Shown: positions 25,358 to 60,876 of the stretch, piece after piece | Numbering within the stretch: position 1 is the stretch's first letter | How the letters are laid out: each line of letters opens with the position of its first letter | Source: Streptomyces albogriseolus | Lineage (GTDB): Bacteria > Actinomycetota > Actinomycetes > Streptomycetales > Streptomycetaceae | Direction of reading: 5' to 3' | Length of the DNA stretch: 64,000 nucleotides | Assembly (NCBI GenBank): GCA_014650475.1 | Contig: BMVA01000001.1 | Location: 496,001 to 560,000, forward strand | Program-made: the position numbers and the translations under genes | The notes under the pieces: model-generated | The model's database searches: none | What the model saw: only the letters and a program-made list of their open reading frames with translations | Told to the model about the DNA's origin: nothing

Positions 25358-25868
25358 CCTCTCGCCCCTCTTGCAGGAAGGTACGCAGGTCAAAGCGCCA
25401 GCGGGTGAAGCAGGCGCCGTCCCGACCGAGCCCCTGCCTCGGAGCGTGCGAGGACTCGTACTGAGGCGCAGAAGGCGTCCCCCGCTCCCCGCGGGCCGCC
25501 GCAACCGCACGACAGCGGTCGCGCAGAGCCCTGTGCTCATGGTCGCGGGCCACGCTCCGGGGGCCGAACGACCCTGCGACGGAACCCGGATGACCCGTGC
25601 CGCAGCAGCCGCCTGTCGTACAGGCTGGAAGCAGGCACCTGAGCAGGGCCCGGACTGCACCGCCGGCACCCCTCGTTGGCCTCGAGCCGTGCGTGGTCAC
25701 GCGGGACAACGAGCCACACGAGGCGAAGGGGACAGGACGAGGGCCAACGACACGGCCACGGCTCTGGCCGTCGGCCACCGGGACCGGCTGATGAGCATGG
25801 CCCGCGAAGTCTACGAAGGCTTCGCAGAGACCGTTGTCGGCACACCCGGCGCATCGAGGAGGAACCTC
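25358..25868. other. Long non-coding region before the CBS-domain gene
   Basis: About 510 bases with no credible gene. Open frames here lack ribosome-binding sites and recognisable products. It contains one exact DevR-like palindrome (25561-25574). If that site drives the CBS gene, the 5' leader would be about 250 bases. Confidence 0.55.
25561..25574. promoter_or_regulatory. DevR/OsdR-like palindrome
   Basis: GGGCCGAACGACCC fits GGGNC-N4-GNCCC exactly. It lies about 300 bases upstream of the CBS-domain gene. Confidence 0.5.
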
Positions 25869-26534
25869 ATGTCACATGGTCCGCATCTCGTGAGCGATGT
25901 CATGACGCACACCGTCGTGGCCGTGGGCCGCGGCGCCTCGTTCAGAGAGATCGTCGAGCTCATGCAGCAGTGGAGGATCAGTGCCTTGCCCGTGCTGGAG
26001 GGCGAAGGGCGTGTCGTCGGTGTCGTGTCGGAGGCAGATCTGCTGCCCAAAGAAGAATTCCGCGACAGCGACCCTGACCGCTTCACGCAGTTGAGGCGGC
26101 TGCCCGACCTGGCCAAAGCGGGCGCACTGACCGCGGGCGAACTGATGAGTACACCGGCCGTCACCGTCCACGCCGACGCCACACTGGCGGAAGCCGCCCG
26201 GGTCATGGCACAGCGGCGGGTCAAGCGACTGCCCGTCACCACCGCCGAGGGGCTTCTCGAAGGCGTGGTCAGTCGCTCCGATCTCCTGAAGGTCTTCCTG
26301 CGGTCCGACGAGGAAGTCGCCGCCGAGATTCGCCAGGAGATCGTCTCCCCCCTCTTCGCCGGCTCCCCGCAACCTGTCCAGGTCCGCGTCTCCGGCGGCA
26401 GGGTGACGCTCAGCGGCCGTCTGCGGGACACCTCGTTGGTGCCCGTGGCCGCCCGTCTGGTCCGCGCGGTCGAGGGGGTGGTCGATGTCGAGTTCGATCC
26501 GCCGGACGGCGACGTGGTGCGTCAGGCCGACTGA
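25869..26534 (+). CDS. Tandem CBS-domain + BON-domain protein
   Basis: 221 residues. Two CBS domains (about 8-65, MTHTVVAVGRGASFREIVELM; and about 92-148, MSTPAVTVHADATLAEAARVM) form an adenosine-ligand-binding Bateman pair. A BON-like segment follows (about 160-215). Such proteins are abundant in actinobacterial dormancy and hypoxia regulons and are thought to sense AMP/ATP or NAD status. The start has GAGGAGGAA just upstream; the longer in-frame extension to the left has no family support. It is transcribed towards the decayed TetR gene. Confidence 0.9.
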   Translation: MSHGPHLVSDVMTHTVVAVGRGASFREIVELMQQWRISALPVLEGEGRVVGVVSEADLLPKEEFRDSDPDRFTQLRRLPDLAKAGALTAGELMSTPAVTVHADATLAEAARVMAQRRVKRLPVTTAEGLLEGVVSRSDLLKVFLRSDEEVAAEIRQEIVSPLFAGSPQPVQVRVSGGRVTLSGRLRDTSLVPVAARLVRAVEGVVDVEFDPPDGDVVRQAD

Positions 26535-26664
26535 CACGCCGGGCACGGAGCACGACGAGCGACGCAACCATAAGCCGCGCCCGGCCCGCAGGGTCGGTGT
26601 TCCTTCGTCGGCGGCGGGCTCGCAGTGACCCGTCGGGCGTCGAGGCATCCGCCGCGCGGGCCCC

Positions 26665-27267
26665 TCACGTGGCGGTCGTGGGGTTTGTGCGGTCCGGGTG
26701 AGGATGGCGGCCCGGGCGGCCGTCTTGGCGGCGTCGACGACCGCGCGGTCCTGCAGCAGGCGCCCGGAGGCCAGCGCGCCGTCGATGAGTAGCCCGAGAT
26801 GTGCGGCCGGAACAGCCGGCTCCGCGGCTCCCGCGGCTCCGGCGAGGCCCGTCAGCCACTCCTGGCGGCGCCGGGTGTGCTCAACGGTGGCCGCGTGGGC
26901 CTTGGACTCCGGCTCGGCCTCGACCGCGGCACTGATGAAGGGGCAGCCGAAGAAGCCGTGGCGGTCGAAGGAAGCCGGCAGCGCGTCGAACAGACCCACC
27001 AGCTGTTGAGCTGGGCCGGCCCCTGCGGCTCCGGCCGCCTCCTGCAACCGCCCCATCCACGACTCGTCCGTGCGCCGAAGGGAGGCAGCGAGGAGATCGT
27101 CCTTGGTGCGGAAGTGTGTGCAGGGCGTGGACTTCGCCACGCCGGAATCTGCGATGACCTGGTCCACCCCCACTCCCCGCAGCCCGTGTGTGTGGCTGAC
27201 GGCCGACCGGTTCACCGACCAGGTGCTCGGGCGCGCCCGAGCATTCCTTCCGTCGGCTCGTGGTCAT
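26665..27267 (-). pseudogene. Frameshifted TetR-family regulator
   Basis: Two frames together give a TetR protein. The N-terminus MTTSRRKECSGAPEHLVGEP starts at 27267 in one frame; the helix-turn-helix THGLRGVGVDQVIADSGVAKS and the ligand domain (ASLRRTDESWMGRLQEA, FFGCPFISAAVEAE) lie in another. The switch falls at a CACACAC run near 27186-27200. The conserved Leu-Tyr of the recognition helix (KSTLYTHF) reads Pro-Cys (KSTPCTHF). The ligand-domain frame has no stop until it is deep antisense to the CBS gene, whereas a natural stop exists in a neighbouring frame at 26665. It is either a decayed gene or affected by sequencing error in the CA run. Confidence 0.75.
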
Positions 27268-27332
27268 GACCGTGCCCCCGACGCCGGGATACCGGACCTC
27301 GGGGGCACGACGGCCCGTACCGCCAGCGTTGT

Positions 27333-27839
27333 TCACCCGTGCGCCATGGCACCGAGCTCCTTCGCCAGGCCCGCCGCCCAGTGCTCGACGGCGGCGAAGT
27401 CGCGGAAGTCACCGCCCTTGCCGTTGCGAAGGATCATGCGGGCGACGCGGCCTTGCGCGCCTTCGGTGAGGCAACCGCCGAAGGTGGCATGCCCGCGGGC
27501 GTCGAGCCCGGCCATGGCCCTCTTGACACCCGGCACGGGCGGAATGTCCCGCTGCGAGGCCGTCGGGTCGAGTGGTCCGGAGCTGAAGAACCACACCGGC
27601 CGGTGCGCCAGAGCTCCGCGGTGCCGCCGTACGAAGCGCCTGGCGTCCTTGTGCCAGCGCCCGGCGTACAGGGCACCGCCGACCACCACAGCCCCATAGC
27701 GGTCCAGGTCCGTCACCGACCGGGCGGGCAGCACCTCGGCCGTGATCTCCGTCCTCCGCAGCACCCTCGCCACGGCCTCGGCCATCTCCTCCGTCGACCC
27801 GTTGGCCGACCCGTAGGCGACCAGCACCTTCTGCTCCAT
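27333..27839 (-). CDS. Flavodoxin-domain protein (HemG-like)
   Basis: 168 residues. The N-terminus MEQKVLVAYGSANGSTEEMA is the FMN phosphate loop of flavodoxins, followed by YGAVVVGGALYAGRWHKDARRF and the WFFSSGPLD loop, as in HemG/protoporphyrinogen-oxidase-like flavodoxins. It probably carries electrons under low oxygen. I start it at the ATG at 27839 with AGGAGG upstream; a GTG 21 bases earlier would overlap the CBS-BON stop. It is last in the adhP-usp-CBS gene string. Confidence 0.85.
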   Translation of the reverse strand: MEQKVLVAYGSANGSTEEMAEAVARVLRRTEITAEVLPARSVTDLDRYGAVVVGGALYAGRWHKDARRFVRRHRGALAHRPVWFFSSGPLDPTASQRDIPPVPGVKRAMAGLDARGHATFGGCLTEGAQGRVARMILRNGKGGDFRDFAAVEHWAAGLAKELGAMAHG

Positions 27840-27856
27840 GAGGGGTCCGCCTCCTC

Positions 27857-31347: not shown

Positions 31348-31469
31348 GACAGTGACTCCTTCGGAGAGGATCCGGCTGGTTCCTGACACCACCCACTCTC
31401 CCGCCCCCCACCACCCCGCACCCGACGCCGTAGGTCCGCACCCCAGGGACTCAACAGCCCCGATCCACA

Positions 31470-31483
31470 GGGACCTTCGGCCA
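31470..31483. promoter_or_regulatory. DevR/OsdR-like palindrome, one mismatch
   Basis: GGGACCTTCGGCCA fits GGGNC-N4-GNCCC except for the last base. It lies between the USP and DoxX-like genes, upstream of the latter. Confidence 0.35.
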
Positions 31484-31502
31484 CCACCGGAGACAGAACA
31501 GC

Positions 31503-31607: not shown

Positions 31608-32528
31608 TCAGTCGTGCGAGATCACCGCCACCGGAGCAGCGGCATGATGCAGCAACGCCTGGGTCACCGGACCGATATGAGCGCCGATCGCCGCCCGGCG
31701 GTTCTGCCTGCCCACCACCACGAGGGCGGCGTCGTAGGAGGCGTCGACCAGGTGGTGTCCGGCACCACCGATCGTGGCCTGCGCGTGAACCTCCACAGCG
31801 GGGTACCTGTCCTGCCACGGCCGCAGGACGTCGGACAGTTCGCTCCGTACCTGCTCGACCATGCCGTCGTTCAGGTCGGGCATGAGCGTGCCGCCGTAGT
31901 AGTAGGGCGGCAGCGTCCAGCCGTGAATGATCCGCAGGCGTGCAGCGCGCCGTGAAGCCGTGTCGAAGGCGAAGTCGATCACCGCGTCATTGGGCTTGTT
32001 CAGGTCCAGGCCCAGGACGACGTCTGGGTGGCCGGAGACGGGGAAGACCTCGCGTGCCGAGGTCTCCGGCGGCGCCTCCTCCTCGCCGTGCTCGGCAGCA
32101 CGGACGAGGACGACGGGCCGCTCGCACGAGGCCAGGACGGCATGGGAGACGGATCCGAGCAGGTATCCCGCCGCCCTGCCCAGCCCCCGGGATCCCAGCG
32201 CCAGTAGCTCTGCCTCCTCGGCGGCCTTCAGCAGAGCCGGGACGGGCAGACCGGGGATCTCGTCCGTGTCGATCCGCAGACCGGGGCGGGCTTCACCGAC
32301 GCGGGCGCGTGCCTGGGCCAGCAGGTGTTGTGCCGATGCCCGCCGCAGGTCGCTCGGCGGCACCGGCACACCGGCTCCGGTCCCCGGTGCGAAGGCGGGG
32401 GCTTGCCACTCCCACGCGGTCACCAGCCTCAGAGGCAGGTCCCGGAGCTGTGCCTCGTGCGCCGCCCAGTCTGCGGCAGCCAGGCTCGCCGGCGAGCCGT
32501 CCAGTCCGACGGTGATGGTGTGGGTCAT
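31608..32528 (-). CDS. Tandem universal stress protein
   Basis: 306 residues made of two USP domains (about 1-145 and 165-306). The first has the ATP-binding loop GSRGLGRAAGYLLGSVSHAV; the second has a weaker version (VGRQNRRAAIGAHIGPVTQALL), as is usual in tandem USPs. Such proteins bind ATP and are strongly induced by hypoxia in actinobacteria. GAAGGAGG precedes the ATG. An exact DevR-like site is centred about 43 bases before a likely transcription start, so it is probably transcribed from its own promoter as well as behind arcC. Confidence 0.93.
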   Translation of the reverse strand: MTHTITVGLDGSPASLAAADWAAHEAQLRDLPLRLVTAWEWQAPAFAPGTGAGVPVPPSDLRRASAQHLLAQARARVGEARPGLRIDTDEIPGLPVPALLKAAEEAELLALGSRGLGRAAGYLLGSVSHAVLASCERPVVLVRAAEHGEEEAPPETSAREVFPVSGHPDVVLGLDLNKPNDAVIDFAFDTASRRAARLRIIHGWTLPPYYYGGTLMPDLNDGMVEQVRSELSDVLRPWQDRYPAVEVHAQATIGGAGHHLVDASYDAALVVVGRQNRRAAIGAHIGPVTQALLHHAAAPVAVISHD

Positions 32529-32583
32529 GGAAATCCTCCTTCAGGCTGCTTCGAGTCTCGATCCCGTCAGGCGGTGACAGCAG

Positions 32584-32597
32584 GGGCCACCGGACCC
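32584..32597. promoter_or_regulatory. DevR/OsdR-like palindrome before usp
   Basis: GGGCCACCGGACCC, exact match. A minus-strand GAGACT (32554-32559) would serve as -10 box, placing the site centre near -43, the classic position for a DevR-type activator. Confidence 0.55.
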
Positions 32598-32653
32598 TGG
32601 CCAGGAGCCGACCGTCCCGGAATCCGGCTCGCCGGTTCGCCGCCCGCCGCCTG

Positions 32654-33577
32654 TCATCCGATGGGGAGTTCGGGTCGTACGAGCGTCCCCGATGTTCCGT
32701 GGGCGATGGCGTACGCGGCGTCGAGCGCTCCGATCGCGGCCAGGCCACCGGTCCGTTCCACGAACCGGGCAGCGGCCTCTGTCTTGGGCTTCATCGAACC
32801 CTCGGGGAAGGTGCTGTCCCGAAGTTGCGCGGGGGTCACGTCGAGCACGGGCTGCTGGCGAGGCGTGCCGAAGTCGGTGTACACGTTCGGGACGTCGGTG
32901 AGGATGAGCAGGAGATCCGCCTTGAGTTCCTCGGCCAGGAGAGCGGCGGTGAAGTCCTTGTCGACGACGGCTTCGACCCCGGTCAGCTCCCCCGTGTCGT
33001 GATCGGCCGTCACGGGGACGCCTCCGCCGCCGGCGCAGACGACCAGCGTTCCGCTGCTCAGCAGGGCGTGGACGGTGTCCGTCTCCACGATGGTCTCGGG
33101 CGCCGGGGACGGGACGACGCGGCGCCATCCCCCGGTGTCCTTGGCGATGTGCCAGCCGCGCTTGCGGGCGAGGACGTGCGCCACCTCCCGCGAATAGATC
33201 TGGCCGACGAACTTGGTGGGCCGCTCGAAGGCCGGGTCGCCCGCACGGACCACGGTGTGGGTGACGAGCGCGGCGACCTGCCGTCCAGGGAGGGCGCCTC
33301 GCAGGGCCCGGGCGAGCAACGATCCGATCATGCCCTGTGTCTGAGCGCCCAGGACGTCCAGAGGGTAGGGAGTGGACAGGGCGGGATCAGCCGCGCTTTC
33401 GAGGGCCAGCAGGCCGATCTGGGGGCCGTTGCCGTGCGTGATGACGAGTTCGTTGTCACGGGCGAGTGCGGCGAGAGCGGTGACGGCCCTGTCGATGTTG
33501 GCCTGCTGCACCGCGGCGTCGGGGCGTTCGCCCCGGTGCAGCAGGGCGTTGCCGCCGAGGGCGACGACGATGCGCAT
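32654..33577 (-). CDS. arcC: Carbamate kinase
   Basis: 307 residues. It transfers the phosphate of carbamoyl phosphate to ADP, yielding ATP, the energy step of the arginine deiminase pathway. Signatures: MRIVVALGGNALLHRGE at the start, VITHGNGPQIG, VCAGGGGVPV, and the nucleotide region LLILTDVPNVYTDFG with SMKPKTEAAARFVE near the end. GGAGG precedes the ATG, three bases after the arcB stop, so it is coupled to arcB. Confidence 0.96.
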   Translation of the reverse strand: MRIVVALGGNALLHRGERPDAAVQQANIDRAVTALAALARDNELVITHGNGPQIGLLALESAADPALSTPYPLDVLGAQTQGMIGSLLARALRGALPGRQVAALVTHTVVRAGDPAFERPTKFVGQIYSREVAHVLARKRGWHIAKDTGGWRRVVPSPAPETIVETDTVHALLSSGTLVVCAGGGGVPVTADHDTGELTGVEAVVDKDFTAALLAEELKADLLLILTDVPNVYTDFGTPRQQPVLDVTPAQLRDSTFPEGSMKPKTEAAARFVERTGGLAAIGALDAAYAIAHGTSGTLVRPELPIG

Positions 33578-33580
33578 GGT

Positions 33581-34582
33581 TCAGTCCTCCAGAGTGGCCA
33601 CGAGCACGGCCTTGATGGTGTGCAGCCGGTTCTCGGCCTGGTCGAAGACAAGGGATGCGGACGAGGAGAAGACGTCGTCGGTGACTTCGAGGCCATCCAG
33701 TCCGTAGGTGTCGAAGAGTTGCCTGCCCAGGCGGGTGCTGCGGTCGTGGAGTGACGGCAGGCAGTGCATGAACCGGGTGTCCGGCTTGCCGGTGGCCGCC
33801 ATCGTCCTGGCGTCGACGCGGTAGGGCAGCAGCAGTTCGACGCGCTCCCGCCAGGTCTCTGCCGGTTCGCCCATGGACACCCACACGTCGGTGTGGAGGA
33901 AGTCGGCACGGCGGACGGCCTCGTTCACGTCCTCGGTCAGGGTGATGCGGGCACCGCTGCCGGCGGCGAGGGAGCGGCACGCGGTGACGAGACCGGATTC
34001 GGGCCACAGCGCTCTGGGGGCGGCGATCCTCACGTCCATACCGAGCAGTGCGCCCATGGACAGGAGGGAGTTGCCCATGTTGTTGCGGGCGTCACCGAGG
34101 TAGCAGTAGCTGATCTCCGCGAGAGGCTTCGGGCTCTGTTCGGTCATCGTGAAGACGTCACAGAGGCTTTGGGTGGGGTGGCTGGTGTCGGTCAGCCCGT
34201 TGAAGACCGGCACACCGGAGTGTTCGGCGAGGCCGGTGACGACGGACTGGCCCGAGCCGCGGTACTCGATGCCGTGGAACATGCGGCCGAGGACGCGGGC
34301 GGTGTCGGCGACGGATTCCTTGACGCCGAGGTGGGTGTCCCCGGGGCCGAGGTAGGTGGTGGCGGCTCCCTGGTCGGCCGCGGCGGCCTCGAAGGCGCAG
34401 CGGGTACGTGTCGAGGTCTTCTCGAAGATCAGGGCCAGGTGCCGGCCGGTCAGGCGCGGCCGCTCGGTGCCCAGGAGCCGGGCCTTCTTGAGGTCGGCGG
34501 CGAGATCCAGGAGGTGCCTGATCTCCGGTGCGGTGAAGTCGAGCTCGCTCAGGTAGGAGCGGCCCCGCAGGTCGATGCTCAC
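33581..34582 (-). CDS. arcB: Ornithine carbamoyltransferase, catabolic
   Basis: 333 residues. In this operon it should work in the catabolic direction, splitting citrulline with phosphate to ornithine and carbamoyl phosphate. The carbamoyl-phosphate loop is STRTR (57-61), with [12 protein letters not shown] and the ornithine-binding loop MHCLPSLHD, plus the SMG-type [14 protein letters not shown] segment. It starts at a GTG with GAGGAA upstream. Context between arcA and arcC decides catabolic arcB over biosynthetic argF. Confidence 0.94.
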
Positions 34583-34604
34583 GGCGGTTCCTCGTGGTCG
34601 GGGG

Positions 34605-35834: not shown

Positions 35835-35870
35835 GGTCGCAAGCTCCAGGGAGAAGGGGGTGGTGAGTGG

Positions 35871-37400: not shown

Positions 37401-37503
37401 GGCGGCGCTCCTGGTGTCGGCCGTTCTCAGCAGGCGATTCGATCCATGACCGATCCTGCTGCGGCGGGAGCGCGCCGATCAGTGGCTACCGGTCCACCGA
37501 GGA

Positions 37504-37517
37504 AGGCCGATGGTCCC
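37504..37517. promoter_or_regulatory. DevR/OsdR-like palindrome, one mismatch
   Basis: AGGCCGATGGTCCC departs from GGGNC-N4-GNCCC only at the first base. It sits in the about 230-base gap between narI (first copy) and the arc operon. Confidence 0.35.
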
Positions 37518-37627
37518 CTGTGATCGCTTCCGACCGGCCCACGGGACCGCGGCGCCACTCGTGAACGCCTGCTCCTGCCGGGAGGCGTTGAGGACTTGCC
37601 CGCCGCACCGGGCAACGGGACCGGCGG

Positions 37628-40769: not shown

Positions 40770-40770
40770 G

Positions 40771-46606: not shown

Positions 46607-46620
46607 GGGCCATCCGTCCC
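46607..46620. promoter_or_regulatory. DevR/OsdR-like palindrome before narK
   Basis: GGGCCATCCGTCCC, exact match, centred about 130 bases before the narK ATG. A minus-strand GACAGT (46577-46582) would be a -10 box placing the site near -43. Confidence 0.5.
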
Positions 46621-46741
46621 TGCCGGCGGACCGACGGCCCCCGGGGCCGGACCCGGACGTCCCGCCACACGGCCCTCCGTACCGTGTTGCCCGCGCGGCT
46701 CCGGCGAAGCAAGGGCTGCGACCGGCCGGCCGCACGCCCCT

Positions 46742-46769
46742 GGGGGTAGGGCCGGTCGGCCCTACCCCC
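46742..46769. promoter_or_regulatory. Extended DevR/OsdR-like palindrome before the PPOX-like gene
   Basis: The exact core GGGCCGGTCGGCCC (46749-46762) sits inside a 28-base palindrome whose outer arms are GGGGGTA and TACCCCC. Its centre is 42.5 bases before the ATG at 46798, so if transcription starts at the ATG the site is at the canonical activator position. This is the strongest site in the window. Confidence 0.6.
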
Positions 46770-52767: not shown

Positions 52768-52846
52768 GGCGTTACCTCCGGATCGGTCGCCGTCAGCATC
52801 CACCGGCGGCGGCGGTCCGCGCGGCCGCCGATGGTCTTGTCGAACA

Positions 52847-52860
52847 GGGCCGTTGGTCCC
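52847..52860. promoter_or_regulatory. DevR/OsdR-like palindrome
   Basis: GGGCCGTTGGTCCC, exact match, about 85 bases upstream of the small ORF start; likely serves the nirK string. Confidence 0.45.
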
Positions 52861-53178
52861 TCTGCGCGGCAGGCGCGGAGGGCCGGACGGACCGTCGGAG
52901 AGGCGACGGCGCGGGTGGGGTCCCCTGTGGCGGCCTGGCACCCGGAGGAGACGGAGTTTCCGGTCCCGTCCGCGCGCACCGCCGCAGGTCGAGGACGGTG
53001 CGGCAAGCGGGGTGTCAGGGCGTCCGCGGTGGTCGCCAGGACGGGCTCCCAGGCCGGTCGGTGCGGCGTCGAGGCCCGGGCCGGCGGTGACTGAGCCGCA
53101 GCCGCCGGGCTTCGGGGCCGCGTTCGCGGCACTCCACGGCGAAGGCTCCCGGGTTGCCCCGTGCCGGAACCCTCCACC

Positions 53179-53192
53179 GGGACCTTGGGCCC
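53179..53192. promoter_or_regulatory. DevR/OsdR-like palindrome, distal site of narG copy 2
   Basis: GGGACCTTGGGCCC, exact match, centred about 100 bases before the narG ATG and 54 bases (about five helical turns) from the proximal site. Confidence 0.5.
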
Positions 53193-53232
53193 TCATGCGA
53201 CCTGCGGGACCGGGCCGGAAGGCCGTCCGGCA

Positions 53233-53276
53233 GGGACCGCCGGCCCAGGCGGGACGCGGGGTGCGCCGCCTAGCGT
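53233..53276 (+). promoter_or_regulatory. Proximal DevR-like site and -10 box of narG copy 2
   Basis: GGGACCGCCGGCCC (53233-53246, exact) is centred about 45 bases before the narG ATG. TAGCGT (53271-53276) ends eight bases before that ATG, which would put the transcription start at or one or two bases before the start codon. Confidence 0.5.
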
Positions 53277-53284
53277 TCTCGGCC

Positions 53285-56200
53285 ATGGAGAACGATCAGA
53301 ACGCACGGCGTGAGCCGCTGCGCGCCGGTGAAAGCTGGCCGCTGGCCGCCCGCAGGCTGCTCACCCGCCGCGAGGTGTCCGCCGACGGGCGCGCCGTGTT
53401 CGGCACGGGCGATCCCTCGTGGGAGGGCTTCTACCGCGACCGGTGGTCGCACGACAAGGTGGTGCGCTCCACGCACGGGGTGAACTGCACGGGCTCGTGC
53501 TCGTGGATGGTGTACGTCAAGGACGGCATCATCACCTGGGAGCACCAGGCCACCGACTACCCGTCGATCGGCACGGACTGCCCCGAGTACGAGCCGCGCG
53601 GCTGCCCCCGCGGAGCGTCGTTCTCCTGGTACACCTACTCCCCCAGCCGGGTCCGCTACCCGTATGTGCGCGGCGCGCTGCTGAAGCTGTGGCGGGAGGC
53701 CCGCAAGCGGCTGGGCGACCCGGTGGCCGCGTGGGCCGAGATCACGTCCGACCCGGCGAAGGCGCGGGCGTACAAGCGGGCTCGCGGCAAGGGCGGTCTG
53801 GTGCGCGCCGACTGGGACGAGGTGAGCGAGCTGATCGCCGCCGCCCAGGTGCACACGGTCAAGGAGTACGGCCCGGACCGGGTCGCGGGTTTCTCGCCCA
53901 TCCCGGCGATGTCGATGGCGTCCTTCGCGGCCGGCGCGCGGTTCCACTCGCTGATCGGCGGCACCCTGCTGTCGTTCTACGACTGGTACGCCGACCTGCC
54001 GATCGCCTCGCCGCAGGTCTTCGGCGACCAGACGGACGTGCCGGAGGCGGCCGACTGGTGGAACGCCGGCTATCTGATCATGTGGGGCTCCAACATCCCC
54101 GTGACCCGTACGCCGGACGCGCACTTCCTGACCGAGACCCGTTACAACGGCACCAAGGTCGTCGCGGTCAGCCCGGACTACGCCGACAACGTCAAGCACG
54201 CCGACGAATGGCTCGCCCCGCATCCCGGCACCGACGGGGCGCTGGCGATGGCCATGGGGCACGTGATCCTGCGCGAGTTCCTCGTCGACCGCGAAGTCCC
54301 CTACTTCCAGGACTATCTGCGCACGTTCACCGACGCGCCGTTCCTGGTGACCCTGCGCGAGCACGACCGGGGACTCGTTCCCGACGGGTTCCTGACCGCC
54401 GCCGACCTCGGCCTGGACGGCGAGGAGAACGCGGAGTCCAAGACCGTCCTCCTGGACCGGGCCACGGGCGAGCCCGTGGTCCCCGGCGGCTCGCTCGGCT
54501 TCCGGTGGGGGGAGGCCGGGCGAGGCCGCTGGAACCTCGAGCTGGGTGACACGGTGCCCGAGTTGAGCCTTCTGGAGCGTGCGGAGGACACGGCCGAGGT
54601 CGCGCTGCCCCGCTTCGACGAGGGAACCACCGAGGGCGGTTCGTTCATGGTCCGGGGCGTCCCGGTCCGCCGGATCGGCGGACGGCTCGTCACCACCGTC
54701 TTCGACCTGATGCTGGCCCAGTACGGCGTGCACCGCCCGGGCCTTCCGGGAAGCTGGCCGTCGTCGTACGAGGACGCCTCCGAGCCGTACACCCCTGCCT
54801 GGCAGGAGACGATCACCTCCGTGCCGGCCGGGCAGGCGGCCCGGATCGCCCGGGAGTTCGCCCGCAACGCCGAGCGCACCCAGGGCCGTTCGATGATCGC
54901 GCTGGGCGCCGGCACCAACCACTGGTTCCACTCGGACACCATCTACCGGGCCTTCCTGGCGCTGACGACCATGACCGGCTGCCAGGGCGTCAACGGCGGG
55001 GGCTGGGCGCACTACGTCGGCCAGGAGAAGGTCCGCCCGGTCACCGGGCAGCAGCATCTGTCCTTCGCCTTCGACTGGCAGCGGCCCACCCGGCACATGG
55101 CAGGCACCTCGTACTGGTATCTGAACTCCGACCAGTGGCGCTACGAGGCGTTCGGGCCCGACGAGCTGGCCTCCCCGCTCGGCGACGGCCGGTTCAAGGG
55201 CAAGGCGTTCGCGGACTGCCTGGCGCAGGCCGTGCGGCTGGGCTGGACTCCCGGTCACCCCGGCTTCAACCGCAATCCCCTCGACCTGACCGACGAAGCG
55301 GCCGCCGCCGGGCGTCCGGTCGCCGAGCACATCGTGGACGAGCTGAAGTCCGGGCGGCTGCGGTTCGCCGCCGAAGACCCCGACGACCCGGCGAATTTCC
55401 CGCGCGTGCTGACCGTGTGGCGGGCGAACCTGCTGGGTTCGTCGGGCAAGGGCAACGAGTACTTCCTGCGTCATCTGCTGGGCACCGACGCGGCAGTCCG
55501 CTCCGCGGAGACCCCGGCCGAGCTCCGGCCGAAGGACGTGGTGTGGCGGGACGAGGCGCCCGAGGGCAAGCTCGACCTGCTGGTCACCATGGACTTCCGG
55601 ATGACCTCCACCAGCCTCCTCTCCGACGTCGTCCTGCCGGCCGCGACCTGGTACGAGAAGGACGACCTGTCCTCCACGGACATGCATCCCTTCGTGCACG
55701 CCTTCACCCCGGCCATCGCCCCGCCCTGGCAGGCCCGCACCGACTACGACACGTTCCTGACCATGGCCGACCGGTTCAGCGAGCTGGCGGCCGAGCACCT
55801 GGGCACGCGTACCGACGTCCTGACGGTTCCGCTGCTGCACGACACCCCCGACGAACTCGCCCAGCCGGGCGGGGTGGTGCGGGACTGGAAGACCGGCGAG
55901 TGCGAGCCGGTCCCGGGCCGGACCATGCCCAAGCTGGTCGTCGTCGAACGGGACTACGCCGCGATCGCGCAGAAGATGCGTGCCGTCGGCCCGCTGCTGG
56001 ACACCCTGGGCACCACCACCAAGGGCATCACCGTCCACCCCGACCAGGAGATCGAGGAGCTGCGGCACCGCAACGGCACCGTCCGGGACGGGGTCGCCGC
56101 CGGACGGCCCTCGCTCGCCACCGCCTCCGACATGTGCGAGGCGATCCTCGCCCTGTCCGGCACCACCAACGGACGCCTGGCCACCGAAGGCTTCCGGGCG

Positions 56201-56986
56201 ATGGAGCGGCAGACCGGCAGCGAGGGGCTCGTCGGGCTCGCCTCCGAACGGGAGGCCGAGCGGATCACCTTCGCCGACACCCGCACCCAGCCCCGCTCCG
56301 TGATGACCTCCTACGAGTGGTCGGGCTCGGAGACGGGTGGCCGCCGCTACTCCCCGTTCGTCATCAACACCGAGCACAAGAAGCCCTGGCACACCCTCAC
56401 CGGCCGCCAGCACTTCTTCGTCCAGCATGACTGGATCTCCGAGCTGGGCGAGCAACTGCCGGTCTACCGACCCCCGTTGAACACGCCCAGGCACTACGGG
56501 GACGAGCAGCTGCGCGAGGACGGCCGGGCGGAGGTGACGGTCCGCTATCTGACCCCGCACTCGAAGTGGTCCATCCACTCGAACTACCAGGACAACAAGT
56601 ACATGCTCGACCTGTCCCGCGGCGGACCCACGATCTGGATGTCCTCGGAGGACGCCGAGAAGATCGGCGTGAAGGACAACGAGTGGATCGAGGCGTACAA
56701 CCGCAACGGCGTCGTCGCCGCCCGGGCCGTGGTCACCCACCGCATGCCCGAGGGAACCGTGTACATGTACCACGCCCAGGACCGCAACGTGAACGTGCCC
56801 AGGACCGAGGTCACCGGCAAGCGCGGCGGCATCCACAACTCCCTCACCCGGCTGCTCCTCAAGCCGACCCATCTCGCGGGCGGCTACGCCCAGTTCACCT
56901 ACGCCTTCAACTACTACGGCCCCACCGGCAACCAGCGCGACGAGGTCACCGTCATCCGCCGTCGCTCACAGGATGTGGAGTACTGA
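53285..56986 (+). CDS. narG: Respiratory nitrate reductase alpha subunit (Mo), copy 2
   Basis: 1233 residues, a close paralogue of copy 1. Fe-S ligands are in THGVNCTGSCSW and EPRGCPRG, and the Mo-ligand Asp is in SFYDWYADLPIASPQ. The ATG has no good ribosome-binding site, and a -10-like TAGCGT lies just before it, so the mRNA is probably leaderless. It heads the operon narG-H-J-I-vkor, with the narH ATG one base after its stop. Two exact DevR-like sites stand in front. Confidence 0.96.
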   Translation: MENDQNARREPLRAGESWPLAARRLLTRREVSADGRAVFGTGDPSWEGFYRDRWSHDKVVRSTHGVNCTGSCSWMVYVKDGIITWEHQATDYPSIGTDCPEYEPRGCPRGASFSWYTYSPSRVRYPYVRGALLKLWREARKRLGDPVAAWAEITSDPAKARAYKRARGKGGLVRADWDEVSELIAAAQVHTVKEYGPDRVAGFSPIPAMSMASFAAGARFHSLIGGTLLSFYDWYADLPIASPQVFGDQTDVPEAADWWNAGYLIMWGSNIPVTRTPDAHFLTETRYNGTKVVAVSPDYADNVKHADEWLAPHPGTDGALAMAMGHVILREFLVDREVPYFQDYLRTFTDAPFLVTLREHDRGLVPDGFLTAADLGLDGEENAESKTVLLDRATGEPVVPGGSLGFRWGEAGRGRWNLELGDTVPELSLLERAEDTAEVALPRFDEGTTEGGSFMVRGVPVRRIGGRLVTTVFDLMLAQYGVHRPGLPGSWPSSYEDASEPYTPAWQETITSVPAGQAARIAREFARNAERTQGRSMIALGAGTNHWFHSDTIYRAFLALTTMTGCQGVNGGGWAHYVGQEKVRPVTGQQHLSFAFDWQRPTRHMAGTSYWYLNSDQWRYEAFGPDELASPLGDGRFKGKAFADCLAQAVRLGWTPGHPGFNRNPLDLTDEAAAAGRPVAEHIVDELKSGRLRFAAEDPDDPANFPRVLTVWRANLLGSSGKGNEYFLRHLLGTDAAVRSAETPAELRPKDVVWRDEAPEGKLDLLVTMDFRMTSTSLLSDVVLPAATWYEKDDLSSTDMHPFVHAFTPAIAPPWQARTDYDTFLTMADRFSELAAEHLGTRTDVLTVPLLHDTPDELAQPGGVVRDWKTGECEPVPGRTMPKLVVVERDYAAIAQKMRAVGPLLDTLGTTTKGITVHPDQEIEELRHRNGTVRDGVAAGRPSLATASDMCEAILALSGTTNGRLATEGFRAMERQTGSEGLVGLASEREAERITFADTRTQPRSVMTSYEWSGSETGGRRYSPFVINTEHKKPWHTLTGRQHFFVQHDWISELGEQLPVYRPPLNTPRHYGDEQLREDGRAEVTVRYLTPHSKWSIHSNYQDNKYMLDLSRGGPTIWMSSEDAEKIGVKDNEWIEAYNRNGVVAARAVVTHRMPEGTVYMYHAQDRNVNVPRTEVTGKRGGIHNSLTRLLLKPTHLAGGYAQFTYAFNYYGPTGNQRDEVTVIRRRSQDVEY

Positions 56987-56987
56987 C

Positions 56988-58514
56988 ATGCGTGTGATGG
57001 CTCAAGTGGCGATGGTGATGAACCTCGACAAGTGCATCGGCTGCCACACCTGCTCGGTCACCTGCAAGCAGACGTGGACCAACCGCACCGGCGTCGAGTA
57101 CGCCTGGTTCAACAACGTCGAGACCAAACCCGGCGTCGGTTACCCGCGCCGCTACGAGGACCAGGAGCACTGGAAGGGCGGCTGGATGCTCGACCGGCGA
57201 GGCCGGCTCGTCCTGCGCTCCGGCGGCCGGATCAAGCGACTCCTCTCCCTCTTCTCCAACCCCGACCTGCCGTCCATCGAGGACTACTACGAGCCGGTCA
57301 CCTACGACTACGACAACCTGGTCAGCGCCCCGGCCCAGAAGGACATCCCCGTCGCCCGCCCCCGCTCCGTCCTCACCGGCGAGCCCGCCGCCATCACCTG
57401 GGGCGCCAACTGGGAGGACGGCCTCGGCGGCGCACCCGAGAACGCCGGCGCCGACCCGAACCTCAGCGGTGAGTGGGCCCAGAAGGTCAAGTTCGAGTTC
57501 GAGCAGACCTTCCTCTTCCACCTGCCCCGCCTGTGCGAGCACTGCCTCAACCCCGCCTGTGTGTCGGCCTGTCCCTCGGGCGCGATGTACAAGCGGGTCG
57601 AGGACGGCATCGTCCTCGTCGACCAGGACAAGTGCCGCGGCTGGCGCATGTGCGTCACGGCCTGCCCGTACAAGAAGGTGTACGTCAACCACGCCACCGG
57701 CAAGGCCGAGAAGTGCACCTTCTGCTTCCCGCGCATCGAGGCCGGTCAGCCCACCGTCTGTTCCGAGACCTGCGTCGGACGTCTGCGCTACCTCGGTCTG
57801 CTCCTCTACGACGCCGACCGTGTCGGCGAGGCCGCCGCCACCCCCGACGAGAAGGACCTCCTCGACGCCCAGCGTGGCGTCTTCCTCGACCCGAACGACC
57901 CGGACGTGCGGGCGGCGGCCCGGGAGTCGGGCATCCCGGAGGACTGGCTGGACGCGGCCCGCCGCTCCCCCGTGTACGACCTGGTCATGCGGTACAAGGT
58001 CGCGCTGCCCCTGCACCCGGAGTACCGCACCCTGCCGATGGTCTGGTACGTCCCTCCGCTCTCGCCCGTCCTGGACGCCGTCGACGCGGCGGGCGGCGAC
58101 CAGGACGACCCCGACCACGTCTTCGCCGCCGTCACCCGGCTGCGCATCCCGCTGGAGTACCTGGCGGAACTGTTCACCGCCGGCGACGCCGAGGTGGTCG
58201 CCGGGGTGCTGATGAAGCTCACCGCGCTGCGCTCGTACATGCGCGAGCGCACCCTCGGCGAGGACGGCGACGAGTCCGTGCTCAAGGCCGTCGGGCTCAC
58301 CGTGCGCGAGGCGGAGGACATGCACCGGCTCCTCGCCGTCGCCAAGTACGAGGACCGCTACGTCGTCCCCGCCGCCCACAAGGAGGACGCCGCCGCGCTC
58401 ACCGCGACGGAGAACCGCTGCCCGGTCGAGACGTCCGGTGACCCCGAACCCCGCACGATCATGCTGGGCATCCCCACCCTGCGCCGCGACACCACTCCCG
58501 GAGGCCGAGCGTGA
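56988..58514 (+). CDS. narH: Nitrate reductase beta subunit (Fe-S), copy 2
   Basis: 508 residues, near the E. coli NarH length. Cluster segments CIGCHTCSVTCKQTW, CEHCLNPACVSACPSGA, CRGWRMCVTACPYKK, and CTFCFPR with CSETCVGR are all present. It lacks the long acidic tail of copy 1. The stop overlaps the narJ GTG. Confidence 0.96.
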   Translation: MRVMAQVAMVMNLDKCIGCHTCSVTCKQTWTNRTGVEYAWFNNVETKPGVGYPRRYEDQEHWKGGWMLDRRGRLVLRSGGRIKRLLSLFSNPDLPSIEDYYEPVTYDYDNLVSAPAQKDIPVARPRSVLTGEPAAITWGANWEDGLGGAPENAGADPNLSGEWAQKVKFEFEQTFLFHLPRLCEHCLNPACVSACPSGAMYKRVEDGIVLVDQDKCRGWRMCVTACPYKKVYVNHATGKAEKCTFCFPRIEAGQPTVCSETCVGRLRYLGLLLYDADRVGEAAATPDEKDLLDAQRGVFLDPNDPDVRAAARESGIPEDWLDAARRSPVYDLVMRYKVALPLHPEYRTLPMVWYVPPLSPVLDAVDAAGGDQDDPDHVFAAVTRLRIPLEYLAELFTAGDAEVVAGVLMKLTALRSYMRERTLGEDGDESVLKAVGLTVREAEDMHRLLAVAKYEDRYVVPAAHKEDAAALTATENRCPVETSGDPEPRTIMLGIPTLRRDTTPGGRA

Positions 58515-59329
58515 ACCCGCTGCCCTCCCCCAGAGCCGAACGCCTGGGGGGACCCCCGTCGATTCCCGCCCTCGTCCGCACCAGGATCCGGGCCGCCGTA
58601 CGCCGCCCTGCCCGGCTCACCCCCGAGGAGACGGCGGGCCGAGCGCTGGTCCTACGGCTCGTGTCGCTGCTCCTGCAATACCCCGACTCCGAACTGACCT
58701 CGTCACGGCCGGAGTTGGCCGCCGTCGTGGAGACCCTGCCGGCCACGCCCGGGGCTGAGCACCTGGCCCGGTTCACCGACTGGTTCGCCGCGCAGGATCC
58801 CGAGGCGCTGGAGCGGCACTACGTCGAGATGTTCGACCTGCGCCGCAAGAGCAGCCTCTACCTCACCTACTACCTGCACGGCGACACCCGCCGCCGGGGC
58901 ATGGCTCTTCTCACCCTCGGCCGGCGTTACCGGGCCGCCGGCTGGAACACCGAGGGCGGAGAACTGCCCGACCATCTGCCGGTCGTCCTGGAGTTCGCCG
59001 CGCTGGCCGGTCCCGGCGGCGGGGAGGCGCCCCTGCGCCAGCACCGGCGCGGTGTGGAGCTGATCCACCGGGCGCTGACGGACTCGGACTCGCCGTACCG
59101 GCACGTGCTGGCCGCGCTGCTCACCCTGCTGCCGCCCCCCACGGAGGCCGACCGCGCGGCGGTGGCCCGGCTCGTCGCGGAGGGCCCGCCCAACGAGGAG
59201 GTCGGCCTCGACCCGTACGGGACCTACGGGGAGGGGGAGTTCGCTCCTCCCGGCACCTTCGTGCCGCCGATGCCCGCCCCGCCGACCCATGTTCCGCACG
59301 CCCCGACCAGCCTGACGGAAGGCGACTGA
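58511..59329 (+). CDS. narJ: Nitrate reductase assembly chaperone, copy 2
   Basis: 272 residues, longer than copy 1 (223). The extra length is an N-terminal Pro/Arg-rich stretch (about 1-40) and a Pro-rich C-terminal tail (about 245-272). The core MFDLRRKSSLYLTYYLHGDTRRRG and ELPDHLPVVLEF matches copy 1. It starts at a GTG overlapping the narH stop. Part of the N-terminal extension is encoded by a hairpin repeat, so that stretch may be an insertion. Confidence 0.93.
   Translation: MNPLPSPRAERLGGPPSIPALVRTRIRAAVRRPARLTPEETAGRALVLRLVSLLLQYPDSELTSSRPELAAVVETLPATPGAEHLARFTDWFAAQDPEALERHYVEMFDLRRKSSLYLTYYLHGDTRRRGMALLTLGRRYRAAGWNTEGGELPDHLPVVLEFAALAGPGGGEAPLRQHRRGVELIHRALTDSDSPYRHVLAALLTLLPPPTEADRAAVARLVAEGPPNEEVGLDPYGTYGEGEFAPPGTFVPPMPAPPTHVPHAPTSLTEGD
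58526..58552 (+). repeat. Hairpin repeat inside the narJ N-terminus
   Basis: TCCCCCAG and CTGGGGGGA form an 8-bp stem around AGCCGAACGC. I recognise this CTCCCCCAG...CTGGGGGG unit as a common Streptomyces dispersed repeat. Here it is translated as part of NarJ residues about 5-14. Confidence 0.55.
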
Positions 59330-60117
59330 TGAACGCCGCGTTCTCCCCCCTGGCCGCCGCTGCGGCGAGCGGCGCCGATCTGCTTCTGTGGGTCGCCGTC
59401 CCCTACATCTGCCTCGCCGTGTTCGCCGTCGGGCACGTCTGGCGCTACCGGCAGGACCAGTTCGGCTGGACCACGCGCACCACCCAGCTCCTCGAACACC
59501 GCTGGCTGCGCTGGGGCAGCCCGCTGTTCCACCTCGGCGCCTTCATGGTCATCGCCGGGCACGTCGTGGGGCTCGCCGTTCCCGGCTCCTGGACGGAGGC
59601 CGTCGGCATCACCGAGCACGCGTACCACACCACAGCCGTGTGGGCGGGCTCGGTGGCGGGCGTCGCCATGGTCGCGGGACTGGGCATGCTGTGCGCCCGA
59701 CGGCTGCTGACCCGCCGGATCAGGCTCGGCACCGACCGCAGCGACAAGCTCCTCTTCCCGCTGCTGTCCGCCACCGTCCTGCTCGGCATCACCGCGACCG
59801 CCGCCCACAACGTGTTCGGCGCCGGATACGACTACCGCTCCACCGTCTCCGTCTGGTTCCGCGGCCTGTTCGTCCTCCAGCCGGAGCCCGAGGCGATCGC
59901 CGGGGCCCCGCTGCTGTTCCAGCTGCACGCCCTGAGCGCCTTCCTGCTCTTCGCGGCCTGGCCGTTCACCCGGCTGGTGCACGTGTGGAGCGCCCCGATC
60001 GGATACCTGGTCAGGCCGTACCTGGTCTACCGGCGGCGCACCGCACCGGCCGCGGACCCGACAGCCTCGGGCCGGACCCGCTCGGCCACCCGCTCCGGCT
60101 CCCGGCGAGCCGCATGA
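59329..60117 (+). CDS. narI: Nitrate reductase gamma subunit (cytochrome b), copy 2
   Basis: 262 residues with five membrane helices and the same haem-ligand segments as copy 1 (AVGHVWRYRQDQFGW, HLGAFMVIAGHVVG, FQLHALSAFLLF, FTRLVHVW). The ATG overlaps the narJ stop and the stop overlaps the VKOR ATG. Confidence 0.95.
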   Translation: MNAAFSPLAAAAASGADLLLWVAVPYICLAVFAVGHVWRYRQDQFGWTTRTTQLLEHRWLRWGSPLFHLGAFMVIAGHVVGLAVPGSWTEAVGITEHAYHTTAVWAGSVAGVAMVAGLGMLCARRLLTRRIRLGTDRSDKLLFPLLSATVLLGITATAAHNVFGAGYDYRSTVSVWFRGLFVLQPEPEAIAGAPLLFQLHALSAFLLFAAWPFTRLVHVWSAPIGYLVRPYLVYRRRTAPAADPTASGRTRSATRSGSRRAA

Positions 60118-60749
60118 GTCACGGACCGGTGCGGGCGCCGGACGCCACGAGCGTCCGGCGCCCGCAGGCGGTGGGCGCGAGCCGCCGAACGGGGTGGGTG
60201 ATGGTCCTCACCGGGGTCGTCGGCTGGCTCGCCTCCTTCCAGCTCACCGTGGAGGACTGGCTGCTCCTGCGCGACCCGGACCGCCAACCGCCCTGCGACA
60301 TCAGCCCCGTGGTGAGCTGCGGCAGCGTCATGTCCAGTCCCCAGGGCAGCGTGTTCGGCTTCCCCAACATGCTGCTCGGCCTGGGCGCCTTCGCCGCCGT
60401 GACCGCCCTGGGCATCGCCGTGCTCTCGGGGGCGCGCCTGCACCGCCGGCTGTGGCTCACGCTGGACGCCGGGGCGCTGGCGGGAGTGGTGTTCGCGCAC
60501 TGGCTGATCGGACAGTCGCTCTACGAACTCAACAAACTGTGCCCCTACTGCGCCGTGGTCTGGACCGTCACCATCGCCCTGTTCTGGTACGTGACCCTGC
60601 ACTGCATGGAACAGGGCGTCGTCCCCGTGCCCCGTGGCGTCCTGGAGGTCGTACGGGACACGCACTGGATGCTGCTCGGCGCCTGGTACGGGATCATCGT
60701 GCTGCTCGTCCTCACCCGGTTTCTGCCGTACTGGAGCAGCCTTCTGTAG
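60114..60749 (+). CDS. Vitamin K epoxide reductase-family thiol oxidoreductase
   Basis: 211 residues with about four to five membrane helices. VKOR catalysis uses two Cys pairs, seen as Cys61/Cys69 (PPCDISPVVSCGSVM) and the active CPYC Cys143/Cys146 in a helix. The SPQGSVFGFPNMLLGL segment is typical. Bacterial VKOR reoxidises DsbA-like proteins using quinone. Translational coupling (ATGA) to narI links it to this nar operon, which is unusual; it may form disulfides when oxygen is scarce, or act on copper-site cysteines of NirK-type proteins. Confidence 0.9.
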   Translation: MSHGPVRAPDATSVRRPQAVGASRRTGWVMVLTGVVGWLASFQLTVEDWLLLRDPDRQPPCDISPVVSCGSVMSSPQGSVFGFPNMLLGLGAFAAVTALGIAVLSGARLHRRLWLTLDAGALAGVVFAHWLIGQSLYELNKLCPYCAVVWTVTIALFWYVTLHCMEQGVVPVPRGVLEVVRDTHWMLLGAWYGIIVLLVLTRFLPYWSSLL

Positions 60750-60760
60750 CCGCCGACGAA

Positions 60761-60779
60761 GACGCGGCAGTGCCGCGTC
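60761..60779 (+). terminator. Hairpin after the nar2-vkor operon
   Basis: GACGCGG and CCGCGTC pair around CAGTG, 12 bases after the VKOR stop. No T tract follows. Confidence 0.55.
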
Positions 60780-60810
60780 GCACAGGGCCGACAGGAGAGC
60801 GTCCCTGTGC
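60780..60810 (+). terminator. Second hairpin in tandem
   Basis: GCACAGGG and CCCTGTGC pair around a 15-base loop, immediately after the first hairpin. Confidence 0.45.
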
Positions 60811-60840
60811 CGAGCGGCCCCGTGACGGGACCGGGTTCCG

Positions 60841-60876
60841 GGGCCGACGGGCCCGAATCGGGGGGCCGTTCGGCCC
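60841..60876. promoter_or_regulatory. Tandem DevR/OsdR-like palindromes before hmp
   Basis: GGGCCGACGGGCCC (60841-60854) and GGGCCGTTCGGCCC (60863-60876) are both exact matches and lie 22 bases apart centre to centre, two helical turns. A related but wider-spaced element (GGGCC-N7-GGCCC) follows at 60901-60917. Confidence 0.55.

What the first reader, a model, noticed from the sequence alone, without database searches (positions are those of the whole stretch)
25561..60876. Recurring DevR/OsdR-like palindrome marks a 35-kb hypoxia regulon
Seen: GGGNC-N4-GNCCC occurs exactly nine times and with one mismatch twice, in front of a CBS gene, usp, DoxX-like gene, arc operon, narK, PPOX-like gene, the nirK string, narG copy 2 and hmp. 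My hand scan found none in the intergenic regions of the first 25 kb. With eight fixed G/C positions and roughly 36% each of G and C, under one copy is expected by chance in the about 2.4 kb of island intergenic DNA. Known: the mycobacterial DosR box core is GGGACTWWAGTCCC, same length and geometry, and S. coelicolor OsdR controls an overlapping dormancy regulon. Inferred: one DevR-type regulator encoded elsewhere controls this island.
Basis: partly seen in the sequence, partly recalled or inferred. Interest (0 to 1): 0.8.

Follow-up and report, generated by a model that had tools for sequence, protein, structure and literature searches.

The report
OsdR/DevR hypoxia regulon in Streptomyces
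A short mirror-image DNA tag in front of many genes of this stretch is very likely the docking site of a known low-oxygen switch protein of soil bacteria, here apparently wired to more nitrate, nitrite and nitric-oxide genes than listed for the model strain.

Summary
Nine exact GGGNC-N4-GNCCC sites lie between genes in 4.0 kb of island intergenic DNA, 0.88 expected from other intergenic DNA of this genome (p 4e-7); whole-window and one-mismatch counts are not above chance. A matrix made from published S. coelicolor OsdR sites finds nine there too (0.65 expected, p 3e-8). The genome encodes a DevR homologue (solved match DevR, E 3e-80) beside a DevS-type kinase on another contig, plus a second of each; both regulator genes carry a box. 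In 80 loci, 76 from Streptomyces, the box recurs before PPOX (73/79), narK (28/30), narG2 (17/19), the radical SAM gene heading the nirK string (11/14) and hmp (12/16), but before narG1 only 1/17. This is the known OsdR regulon; narGHJI copy 1 seems not to be in it. New detail: boxes at nirK, hmp and arc genes; box spacings of 21-22, 33 and 54 bp; and a PPOX box 42.5/43.5 bp before the start codon with a -10-like hexamer at -12 to -7, suggesting a leaderless promoter. Binding and hypoxic induction are untested.

The parts
25560..25575 (.). OsdR box GGGGCCGAACGACCCT upstream of the CBS-BON gene 25902-26534(+)
   Evidence: matrix score 13.2; A-N3-T -10 candidate CAGGCT at +54; 334 bp from the called start
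25902..26534 (+). CBS-BON domain protein
   Evidence: Pfam CBS E 7e-29, BON E 4e-9
31469..31484 (.). weak box AGGGACCTTCGGCCAC upstream of the 179-aa gene 30718-31257(-); may be chance
32583..32619 (.). box pair 21 bp apart upstream of the two-domain Usp gene 31608-32528(-)
   Evidence: exact pattern at 32584 (matrix score under 4.5) and 32604 (score 7.2); -10 candidate GAGACT 53 bp from the distal box
31608..32528 (-). universal stress protein
   Evidence: Pfam Usp E 6e-42
37503..37518 (.). box AAGGCCGATGGTCCCC upstream of the arc operon
   Evidence: score 12.6; -10 candidate CAGGAT 53 bp downstream
32654..37298 (-). arginine deiminase operon: amino acid permease, deiminase (arcA), OTC (arcB), carbamate kinase-like (arcC)
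   Evidence: Pfam
37628..44496 (-). narGHJI copy 1: no box; probably not part of the regulon
   Evidence: no site of score 4.5 or more in 44497-44646; 1 of 17 relatives' narG1 upstream regions has one of 10 or more
44647..46412 (-). NarK transporter (45204 to 46412 or 46484) followed by hemerythrin (44647-45126)
   Evidence: TIGR00886 E 3e-59, below its curated cut-off; hemerythrin E 3e-19; the two narK starts
46606..46641 (.). box pair 20 bp apart serving narK (leftward)
   Evidence: scores 11.5 and 7.1; -10 candidate GACAGT at 32 and 52 bp
46748..46763 (.). near-consensus OsdR box AGGGCCGGTCGGCCCT serving PPOX (rightward)
   Evidence: score 20.8, centre -42.5 from the PPOX start codon, GACGAT at -12..-7; same geometry in 73 of 84 PPOX rows of relatives
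46798..47220 (+). pyridoxamine 5'-phosphate oxidase-like protein (SCO0214 counterpart by name and order)
   Evidence: Pfam Pyridox_ox_2 E 5e-28
47195..48217 (-). Acg/Rv3131-family FMN nitroreductase; no own box here, 35 bp behind the nirK string and perhaps read with it
   Evidence: NF047509 E 5e-84, above its cut-off; gene spacing
48253..52606 (-). radical SAM (51341-52606), membrane-cupredoxin-NirK fusion (48699-51344), CopD-like protein (48253-48699): the nirK string
   Evidence: TIGR04053 E 2e-147; PDB nitrite reductase 2dv6 E 4e-44; TIGR02376 E 2e-45, below its cut-off; CopD below its cut-off
52846..52894 (.). box pair 33 bp apart serving the nirK string (leftward)
   Evidence: scores 17.0 and 12.9; -10 candidate GATGCT 54 bp from the strong box
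53178..53247 (.). three-box array (53178, 53211, 53232; steps 33 and 21 bp) serving narG2 (rightward)
   Evidence: scores 9.9, 8.6, 10.4; -10 candidate TAGCGT 32 bp from the nearest box, 8 bases before the ATG
53285..60117 (+). narGHJI copy 2
   Evidence: Pfam for narG, narJ, narI; narH (56988-58514) not scanned, named by position
60840..60877 (.). tandem boxes 22 bp apart upstream of hmp
   Evidence: scores 11.8 and 18.2; no -10 candidate at the expected offsets
60995..62209 (+). flavohaemoglobin (NO dioxygenase) Hmp
   Evidence: PRK13289 E 7e-105, below its cut-off; Pfam globin, FAD- and NAD-binding domains

Best explanation
The palindromes are binding sites (boxes) of OsdR, the Streptomyces orthologue of mycobacterial DevR/DosR, and the island is one block of a dispersed OsdR regulon. 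When oxygen falls (or NO changes), the haem-binding OsdK/DevS-type kinase phosphorylates OsdR; OsdR~P dimers bind GGGCC-N4-GGCCC boxes. One box overlaps the -35 position (centre about -42.5 from the transcription start), often with further boxes two, three or five helical turns away, and OsdR recruits RNA polymerase to a poor -10 element (A at -11, T at -7). Targets here: CBS-BON gene, usp, arc operon, narK, PPOX, the nirK string, narGHJI-2 and hmp. SHOWN here: the sites, their enrichment, their conservation in other species, the geometry, and the presence of regulator and kinase genes with the key residues. INFERRED: binding, the direction of control, the signal, and leaderless transcription of PPOX.
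For: A matrix made only from 25 published S. coelicolor OsdR sites gives 9 hits of score 10 or more in island intergenic DNA, 0 in island coding DNA, 0.65 intergenic expected (p 3e-8). Island core as in S. coelicolor SCO0212-0219 by the gene names. DevR homologue C12:173211-173909: best solved match DevR 3c3w, E 3e-80, with the aspartate and DNA-contact residues of DevR in the alignment; the adjacent kinase matches the DosT/DevS haem GAF domains (E 4e-50 to 8e-44), and both kinases keep the His and the Tyr 22 residues later. Boxes stand before both osdR copies and before 21 of 31 OsdR-type genes tested (2 own, 29 of relatives), against 0 of 10 other NarL-type regulators of this genome. In the 80 relatives' loci: ppox 73/79, narK 28/30, narG2 17/19, radical SAM of the nirK string 11/14, hmp 12/16 with a box; shuffles 1-5% for these classes. 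Box-pair spacings peak at 21-22, 33 and 54 bp in intergenic DNA. Genomes with a regulator of 70% identity or more hold more strict consensus sites (2.3 vs 0.8 per genome, 43 vs 18 genomes, p 3e-4); the reversed control pattern does not differ (1.3 vs 1.5). In S. coelicolor OsdR binds such sites in gel shifts (PMC5069765, passages), and DevR binds upstream of narG2 and deletion of devS or devR lowers its transcripts (PMC4766573, passages).
Against: The raw count in the window is not above chance, 3 of 12 exact sites in the stretch are coding, and one-mismatch sites are not enriched. Outside the island the pattern is not commoner between genes than other spacers. narGHJI-1 and the genes at 27-30.6 kb have no box in front. 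10 of 31 OsdR-type genes tested lack an upstream box. 11 of 84 PPOX-labelled rows lack the geometry: 8 have no box of score 10, 3 have it elsewhere. In the own genome alone the -10 peak is weak (6 of 78 oriented sites at offset 32, next best 4); hmp and the 179-aa gene have no -10 at the expected offsets, and in relatives only 15 of 27 narK and 6 of 13 hmp promoters with a box show it. No expression or binding data exist for this strain in what I saw. The sign of the NO response is unsettled: PMC4766573 reports that NO lowers DevS phosphorylation and narG2 transcripts, PMC5069765 cites up-regulation of the osdR region by an NO donor.
Confidence: 0.92

Rival explanations
1. The palindromes are bound by another NarL/LuxR-type or Crp/Rrf2-type regulator that happens to prefer a similar GC-rich palindrome; OsdR is a bystander.
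For: The genome search with OsdR lists 87 matches, many of them full-length relatives at 35-45% identity; NsrR controls hmp in S. coelicolor (PMC4766573 passages).
Against: The matrix was built from published OsdR sites, not from the window; boxes precede both osdR copies but none of 10 other NarL-type genes tested; consensus sites co-vary with OsdR presence among 61 genomes.
Confidence: 0.05
2. Chance: a 71% G+C genome produces such palindromes anyway.
For: 718 sites in 8.07 Mb; 14 in the window against 10.3 in shuffles; one-mismatch sites 13 against 10.1 expected.
Against: Nine exact intergenic sites against 0.88 expected; spacer and reversed-pattern controls; conservation at fixed positions in other species.
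Confidence: 0.01
3. For PPOX, the invariant GATG before the start codon is a conserved upstream start codon or other translational signal, not the -10 element of a leaderless promoter.
For: A-8, T-7 and G-6 together read ATG; A-8 and G-6 are each kept in 72 of 73 rows.
Against: Only 20 of 73 rows have a Shine-Dalgarno core against 616 of 999 other genes (my gene caller rewards such cores when it picks starts, which inflates the 616); the frame it would open differs among rows by eye; the same A-N3-T at the same distance from a box recurs before narK, narG2, nirK, usp and nitroreductase genes, with other letters at -8 (GACAGT, TAGCGT, GATGCT).
Confidence: 0.15

Closest known systems
OsdR (SCO0204)/OsdK (SCO0203) regulon of Streptomyces coelicolor (PMC5069765)
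   Same: Same 16-bp consensus, DevR/DevS-type pair, box before osdR, and hemerythrin-narK-PPOX-nitroreductase-narGHJI2 order with sites before narK/PPOX and narG2; nar copy 1 outside (Nar1 and Nar3 not under OsdRK according to the review PMC8139620, passages).
DevR/DosR-DevS-DosT dormancy regulon of Mycobacterium tuberculosis
   Same: Regulator and kinases are close homologues with the key residues; several boxes per promoter with the nearest one over the -35 (PMC3029386 passages); two haem-type kinases.
NsrR-controlled flavohaemoglobin of Streptomyces
   Same: The genome's second Hmp (C2:329504, 61% identical) lies beside an Rrf2/NsrR-like gene, named by eye from its sequence.
   Different: That copy has no box of score 8 or more within 1.5 kb; the window's hmp has two OsdR boxes.

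Membership tests
OsdR/DevR regulon | Promoter palindromes matching the published OsdR sites more often than in other intergenic DNA | tested here: met
   9 vs 0.65 expected at matrix score 10 or more
OsdR/DevR regulon | Genome encodes a DevR-type NarL-family regulator with the phosphorylated Asp and the DNA-contact Lys/Lys/Asn | tested here: met
   alignment to 3c3w: residues at positions 54, 179, 182, 183 identical (their roles are recalled)
OsdR/DevR regulon | DevS-type kinase: two GAF domains, HisKA_3, ATPase, haem His and distal Tyr | tested here: met
   (His149/Tyr171 roles are recalled)
OsdR/DevR regulon | Box in front of the regulator's own gene | tested here: met
   both copies
OsdR/DevR regulon | Gene order narK - PPOX - nitroreductase - narGHJI2 shared with S. 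coelicolor | tested here: met
   against Table 1 of PMC5069765, with the nirK string inserted; S. coelicolor DNA itself was not aligned
OsdR/DevR regulon | Nearest box overlaps the -35 region | tested here: inconclusive
   geometry fits but no transcription starts were mapped
OsdR/DevR regulon | Binding by phosphorylated OsdR and hypoxic induction | not testable with these tools
   needs gel shifts, ChIP or RNA-seq

The most novel reading that the evidence does not exclude
In part of Streptomyces one oxygen/NO-sensing system (OsdKR) directly controls a whole nitrogen-oxide cycle, nitrate to nitrite (Nar2, NarK), nitrite to NO (NirK fusion) and NO back to nitrate (Hmp), together with arginine fermentation and probably pyruvate formate-lyase and AdhE, through a readable promoter code: one box at -42.5 over the -35, further boxes at helical steps of 21-22, 33 and 54 bp, a poor -10 and, for PPOX, a leaderless mRNA.
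Probability: 0.45. Interest if true: 0.55.

Novelty: new member of a known kind. Interest (0 to 1): 0.42.

Why it matters
Streptomycetes cannot grow anaerobically yet carry anaerobic enzymes (the 'anaerobic paradox' in PMC5069765, section 16 read). The boxes tie nitrite reductase, flavohaemoglobin and arginine deiminase to the same switch as nitrate reductase 2, which suggests where NO may come from in strains with nirK; PMC4766573 (passages) left the mechanism of NO production in S. coelicolor open. The fixed geometry would make the regulon predictable base by base in other streptomycete genomes and gives a direct test of leaderless control.

Tried and rejected
Considered chance (rejected for the exact intergenic set; not rejected for one-mismatch sites), another spacer or a reversed palindrome, and one uniform 35-kb regulon (rejected: narGHJI-1 has no box here, and 16 of 17 relatives' narG1 upstream regions have none of score 10). 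The own-genome -10 peak alone was too weak to carry the promoter argument, so relatives were used; the offsets tested were taken from the peaks on the same loci, so that test is not independent. A first script to find boxes before osdR orthologues failed to place the gene in 9 of 31 loci and mis-placed it in others (13 of 31) and was replaced by a tblastn-based one (21 of 31). Literature: searches (OsdR, leaderless; 2 papers; Streptomyces, nirK, OsdR; 1 paper) found no paper that, as far as I saw, links OsdR with leaderless promoters or with nirK control; of these three I saw passages of PMC8139620 only, the other two as listings. Searches were read as listings. Passages were read of PMC3029386, PMC6448022, PMC4766573, PMC6302529, PMC8139620 and PMC5069765, of the last also sections 7 and 16. 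Fischer 2019 and Daigle 2015 are known to me only through those papers. The 70% identity line between OsdR-type and other regulators was drawn after seeing the list; two genomes (G033, G058) reach it only by partial matches. Upstream regions under 60 bases were dropped; 80 of 135 loci were kept; genes beside 14 of the 39 outside boxes were annotated.
Full report
OBSERVATION. GGGNC-N4-GNCCC occurs 14 times in the window, 12 times from 25,561 to 60,876. Counted without regard to genes the number is ordinary (shuffle mean 10.3), and genome-wide the pattern (718) is rarer than the same pattern read backwards (1,181). The signal is in the placement: 9 sites in 4,008 island intergenic bases against 61 in 278,898 intergenic bases elsewhere (2.05 Mb examined, 25% of the genome), 0.88 expected, p 4e-7.

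INDEPENDENT MATRIX. To avoid testing a motif on the data that suggested it, I built a matrix only from the 25 sites printed in Table 1 of Urem et al. 2016 (PMC5069765, section 7 read), whose consensus is AGGGCCGATCGGCCCT. At score 10 or more it finds 9 intergenic and 0 coding sites in the island, and 45 intergenic and 80 coding elsewhere; 0.65 were expected in the island's intergenic DNA (p 3e-8). Of 1,795 sliding 36-kb windows the island's has the most (9); the best windows apart from it have 5 (two blocks of contig C12, one of them holding osdRK), the median is 1.

REGULATOR. The GAF_2 search led to a 582-aa kinase on C12 next to a 232-aa response regulator. The regulator's best solved match is DevR 3c3w (E 3e-80), with the residues at DevR positions 54, 179, 182 and 183 identical (roles recalled). 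The kinase's first GAF domain matches DosT and DevS haem domains (E 4e-50 to 8e-44); the His before PPM and the Tyr 22 residues later, equivalent to the recalled DevS His149 and Tyr171, are present in it and in a second kinase at C1:303-305 kb. The two kinases are 74% identical. A second regulator copy lies on C5 (86%, 85%) with a full consensus box centred 74 bp before its start.

OTHER PLACES IN THE GENOME. Of 39 intergenic boxes of score 10.5 or more outside the island I annotated the genes beside 14. They include osdR, two further PPOX genes (C1:451472, C12:169198), three Usp genes, a CBS-BON gene, the divergent PFL and PPDK genes (PFL followed by its activase gene) and an AdhE-like gene. 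PFL and PPDK were already seen co-expressed with osdR in S. lividans (PMC6302529, Table 2 passage). Others have no evident link: C1:696156 lies between convergent genes, C1:292466 between a molybdopterin oxidoreductase and a methyltransferase gene, and several neighbours have no Pfam match.

RELATIVES. The PPOX protein retrieved 80 named loci, 76 from Streptomyces (135 matched, 80 kept). Upstream regions of at least 60 bases with a box of score 10 or more: ppox 73/79, narK 28/30, narG2 17/19, radical SAM (first gene of the nirK string) 11/14, hmp 12/16, usp 18/27, nitroreductase 15/22, cbs 5/9, adh 4/5, hemerythrin 3/10, narG1 1/17, arcC 0/2, unlabelled genes 151/672; dinucleotide shuffles give 2.1% for unlabelled genes and 0.9-5% for ppox, narK, narG2, radical SAM, hmp, usp and nitroreductase. 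In 11 of the 14 loci with the radical SAM gene a nirK gene was also labelled. The unlabelled figure is high, I think because these loci are rich in hypoxia genes. The arc operon was not tested in relatives in any number. Related species are not independent; a box in a region whose spacer has diverged is nevertheless a footprint.

PROMOTER GEOMETRY. Of 84 PPOX-labelled rows 76 have a box of score 10 or more, 73 of them centred at -42.5 (54) or -43.5 (19) from the start codon. All 73 have A at -11 and T at -7 from the start codon (mostly GACGAT, GACCAT, CACGAT), as have all 53 rows left after removing those at least 75% alike; in the 36 of these at -42.5 the spacer columns from -33 to -12 are at 39-72%. 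Only 20 of 73 have a Shine-Dalgarno core, against 616 of 999 other genes (the gene caller favours such cores). I read this as a -10 element whose transcript starts at the start codon, with OsdR over the -35. The same A-N3-T at 31-33 or 53-54 bp from a box of score 7 or more occurs in narK 15/27, narG2 15/19, radical SAM/nirK 11/11, hmp 6/13, usp 16/20 and nitroreductase 15/17 promoters with such a box, against 2.4, 3.9, 0.0, 1.2, 2.1 and 1.5 from shifted offsets (offsets chosen from then on the same loci). Box pairs in intergenic DNA of the relatives peak at 21-22 bp (23 and 32), 33 (13) and 54 (18) against a mean of 4.2 per spacing; the 99 coding sites show no comparable peak. The 54-bp peak is partly due to narG2 orthologues. 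In the window the pairs are 20, 21, 21, 22, 33 and 33 bp apart. PMC3029386 (passages) describes close packing and overlap with the -35 for M. tuberculosis DevR promoters, so the architecture is shared, not new; the leaderless PPOX arrangement I did not find described (search 35).

CO-VARIATION. Among 61 genomes of the genus, 43 with a regulator at 70% identity or more have 2.3 strict AGGGCCGNNCGGCCCT sites each, 18 without have 0.8 (p 3e-4); the reversed pattern gives 1.3 and 1.5 (p 0.80). Of 31 OsdR-type genes tested (2 own, 29 of the relatives' matches) 21 have a box in front; none of 10 other NarL-type genes of this genome does.

WHAT IT DOES. The nirK fusion aligns with copper nitrite reductases over its last 390 residues and, by eye, keeps the Cys-His and active-site Asp/His stretches (roles recalled). 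It is found in 15 of 150 genomes of the genus at E 1e-150, the own included. With Nar2, NarK and Hmp it would close a nitrate-nitrite-NO-nitrate cycle under one sensor. Radical SAM, nirK, CopD-like and nitroreductase genes follow each other with gaps of -4, -1 and 35 bp, so the box pair at 52,846 may drive all four. The genome's other Hmp lies beside an Rrf2-type, NsrR-like gene (by eye) and has no box of score 8 or more within 1.5 kb, so the two Hmps appear to be split between two regulators. In S. coelicolor hmpA is under NsrR and narG2 under DevSR (PMC4766573, passages).

VERDICT. A real, conserved OsdR regulon: known in kind, confirmed here with controls, extended in content (nirK, hmp, arc) and refined in promoter geometry. 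narGHJI-1 should be taken out of the claimed regulon. The organism is taken to be a Streptomyces because 76 of the 80 best named loci are; the genome itself is unnamed.

Noticed in passing
G000:C12:174003-180058 and 181490-184132: Pyruvate formate-lyase, its activase, PPDK and an AdhE-like gene lie beside osdRK with boxes at 177114, 177259 and 181344: a fermentation set in a supposed aerobe; PFL and PPDK are already linked to OsdR in S. lividans, for AdhE I saw no such report.
   Followed up: partly
G000:C5:275611-276294: Second osdR copy (85-86% identical) with a full consensus box; no kinase gene was called within the 1.5 kb on either side that was read.
   Followed up: partly
G000:C1:292466-292481: The best-scoring box of the 2.05 Mb stands between a molybdopterin oxidoreductase and a divergent SAM methyltransferase gene.
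   Followed up: no
G000:C2:443292-445934: A second near-full-length relative of the NirK fusion, 46% identical.
   Followed up: no
15419-24451 (-): A 3,010-aa open reading frame next to the island, not examined.
   Followed up: no
51341-52606 (-): A TIGR04053 radical SAM/SPASM protein (next best models AhbD and NirJ types) heads the nirK string; it was labelled together with nirK in 11 of the 14 relatives' loci with nirK. Its role beside a copper nitrite reductase is unclear.
   Followed up: no
window-wide: The reversed pattern CCCNGNNNNCNGGG is commoner in the genome (1,181) than the pattern itself (718).
   Followed up: no
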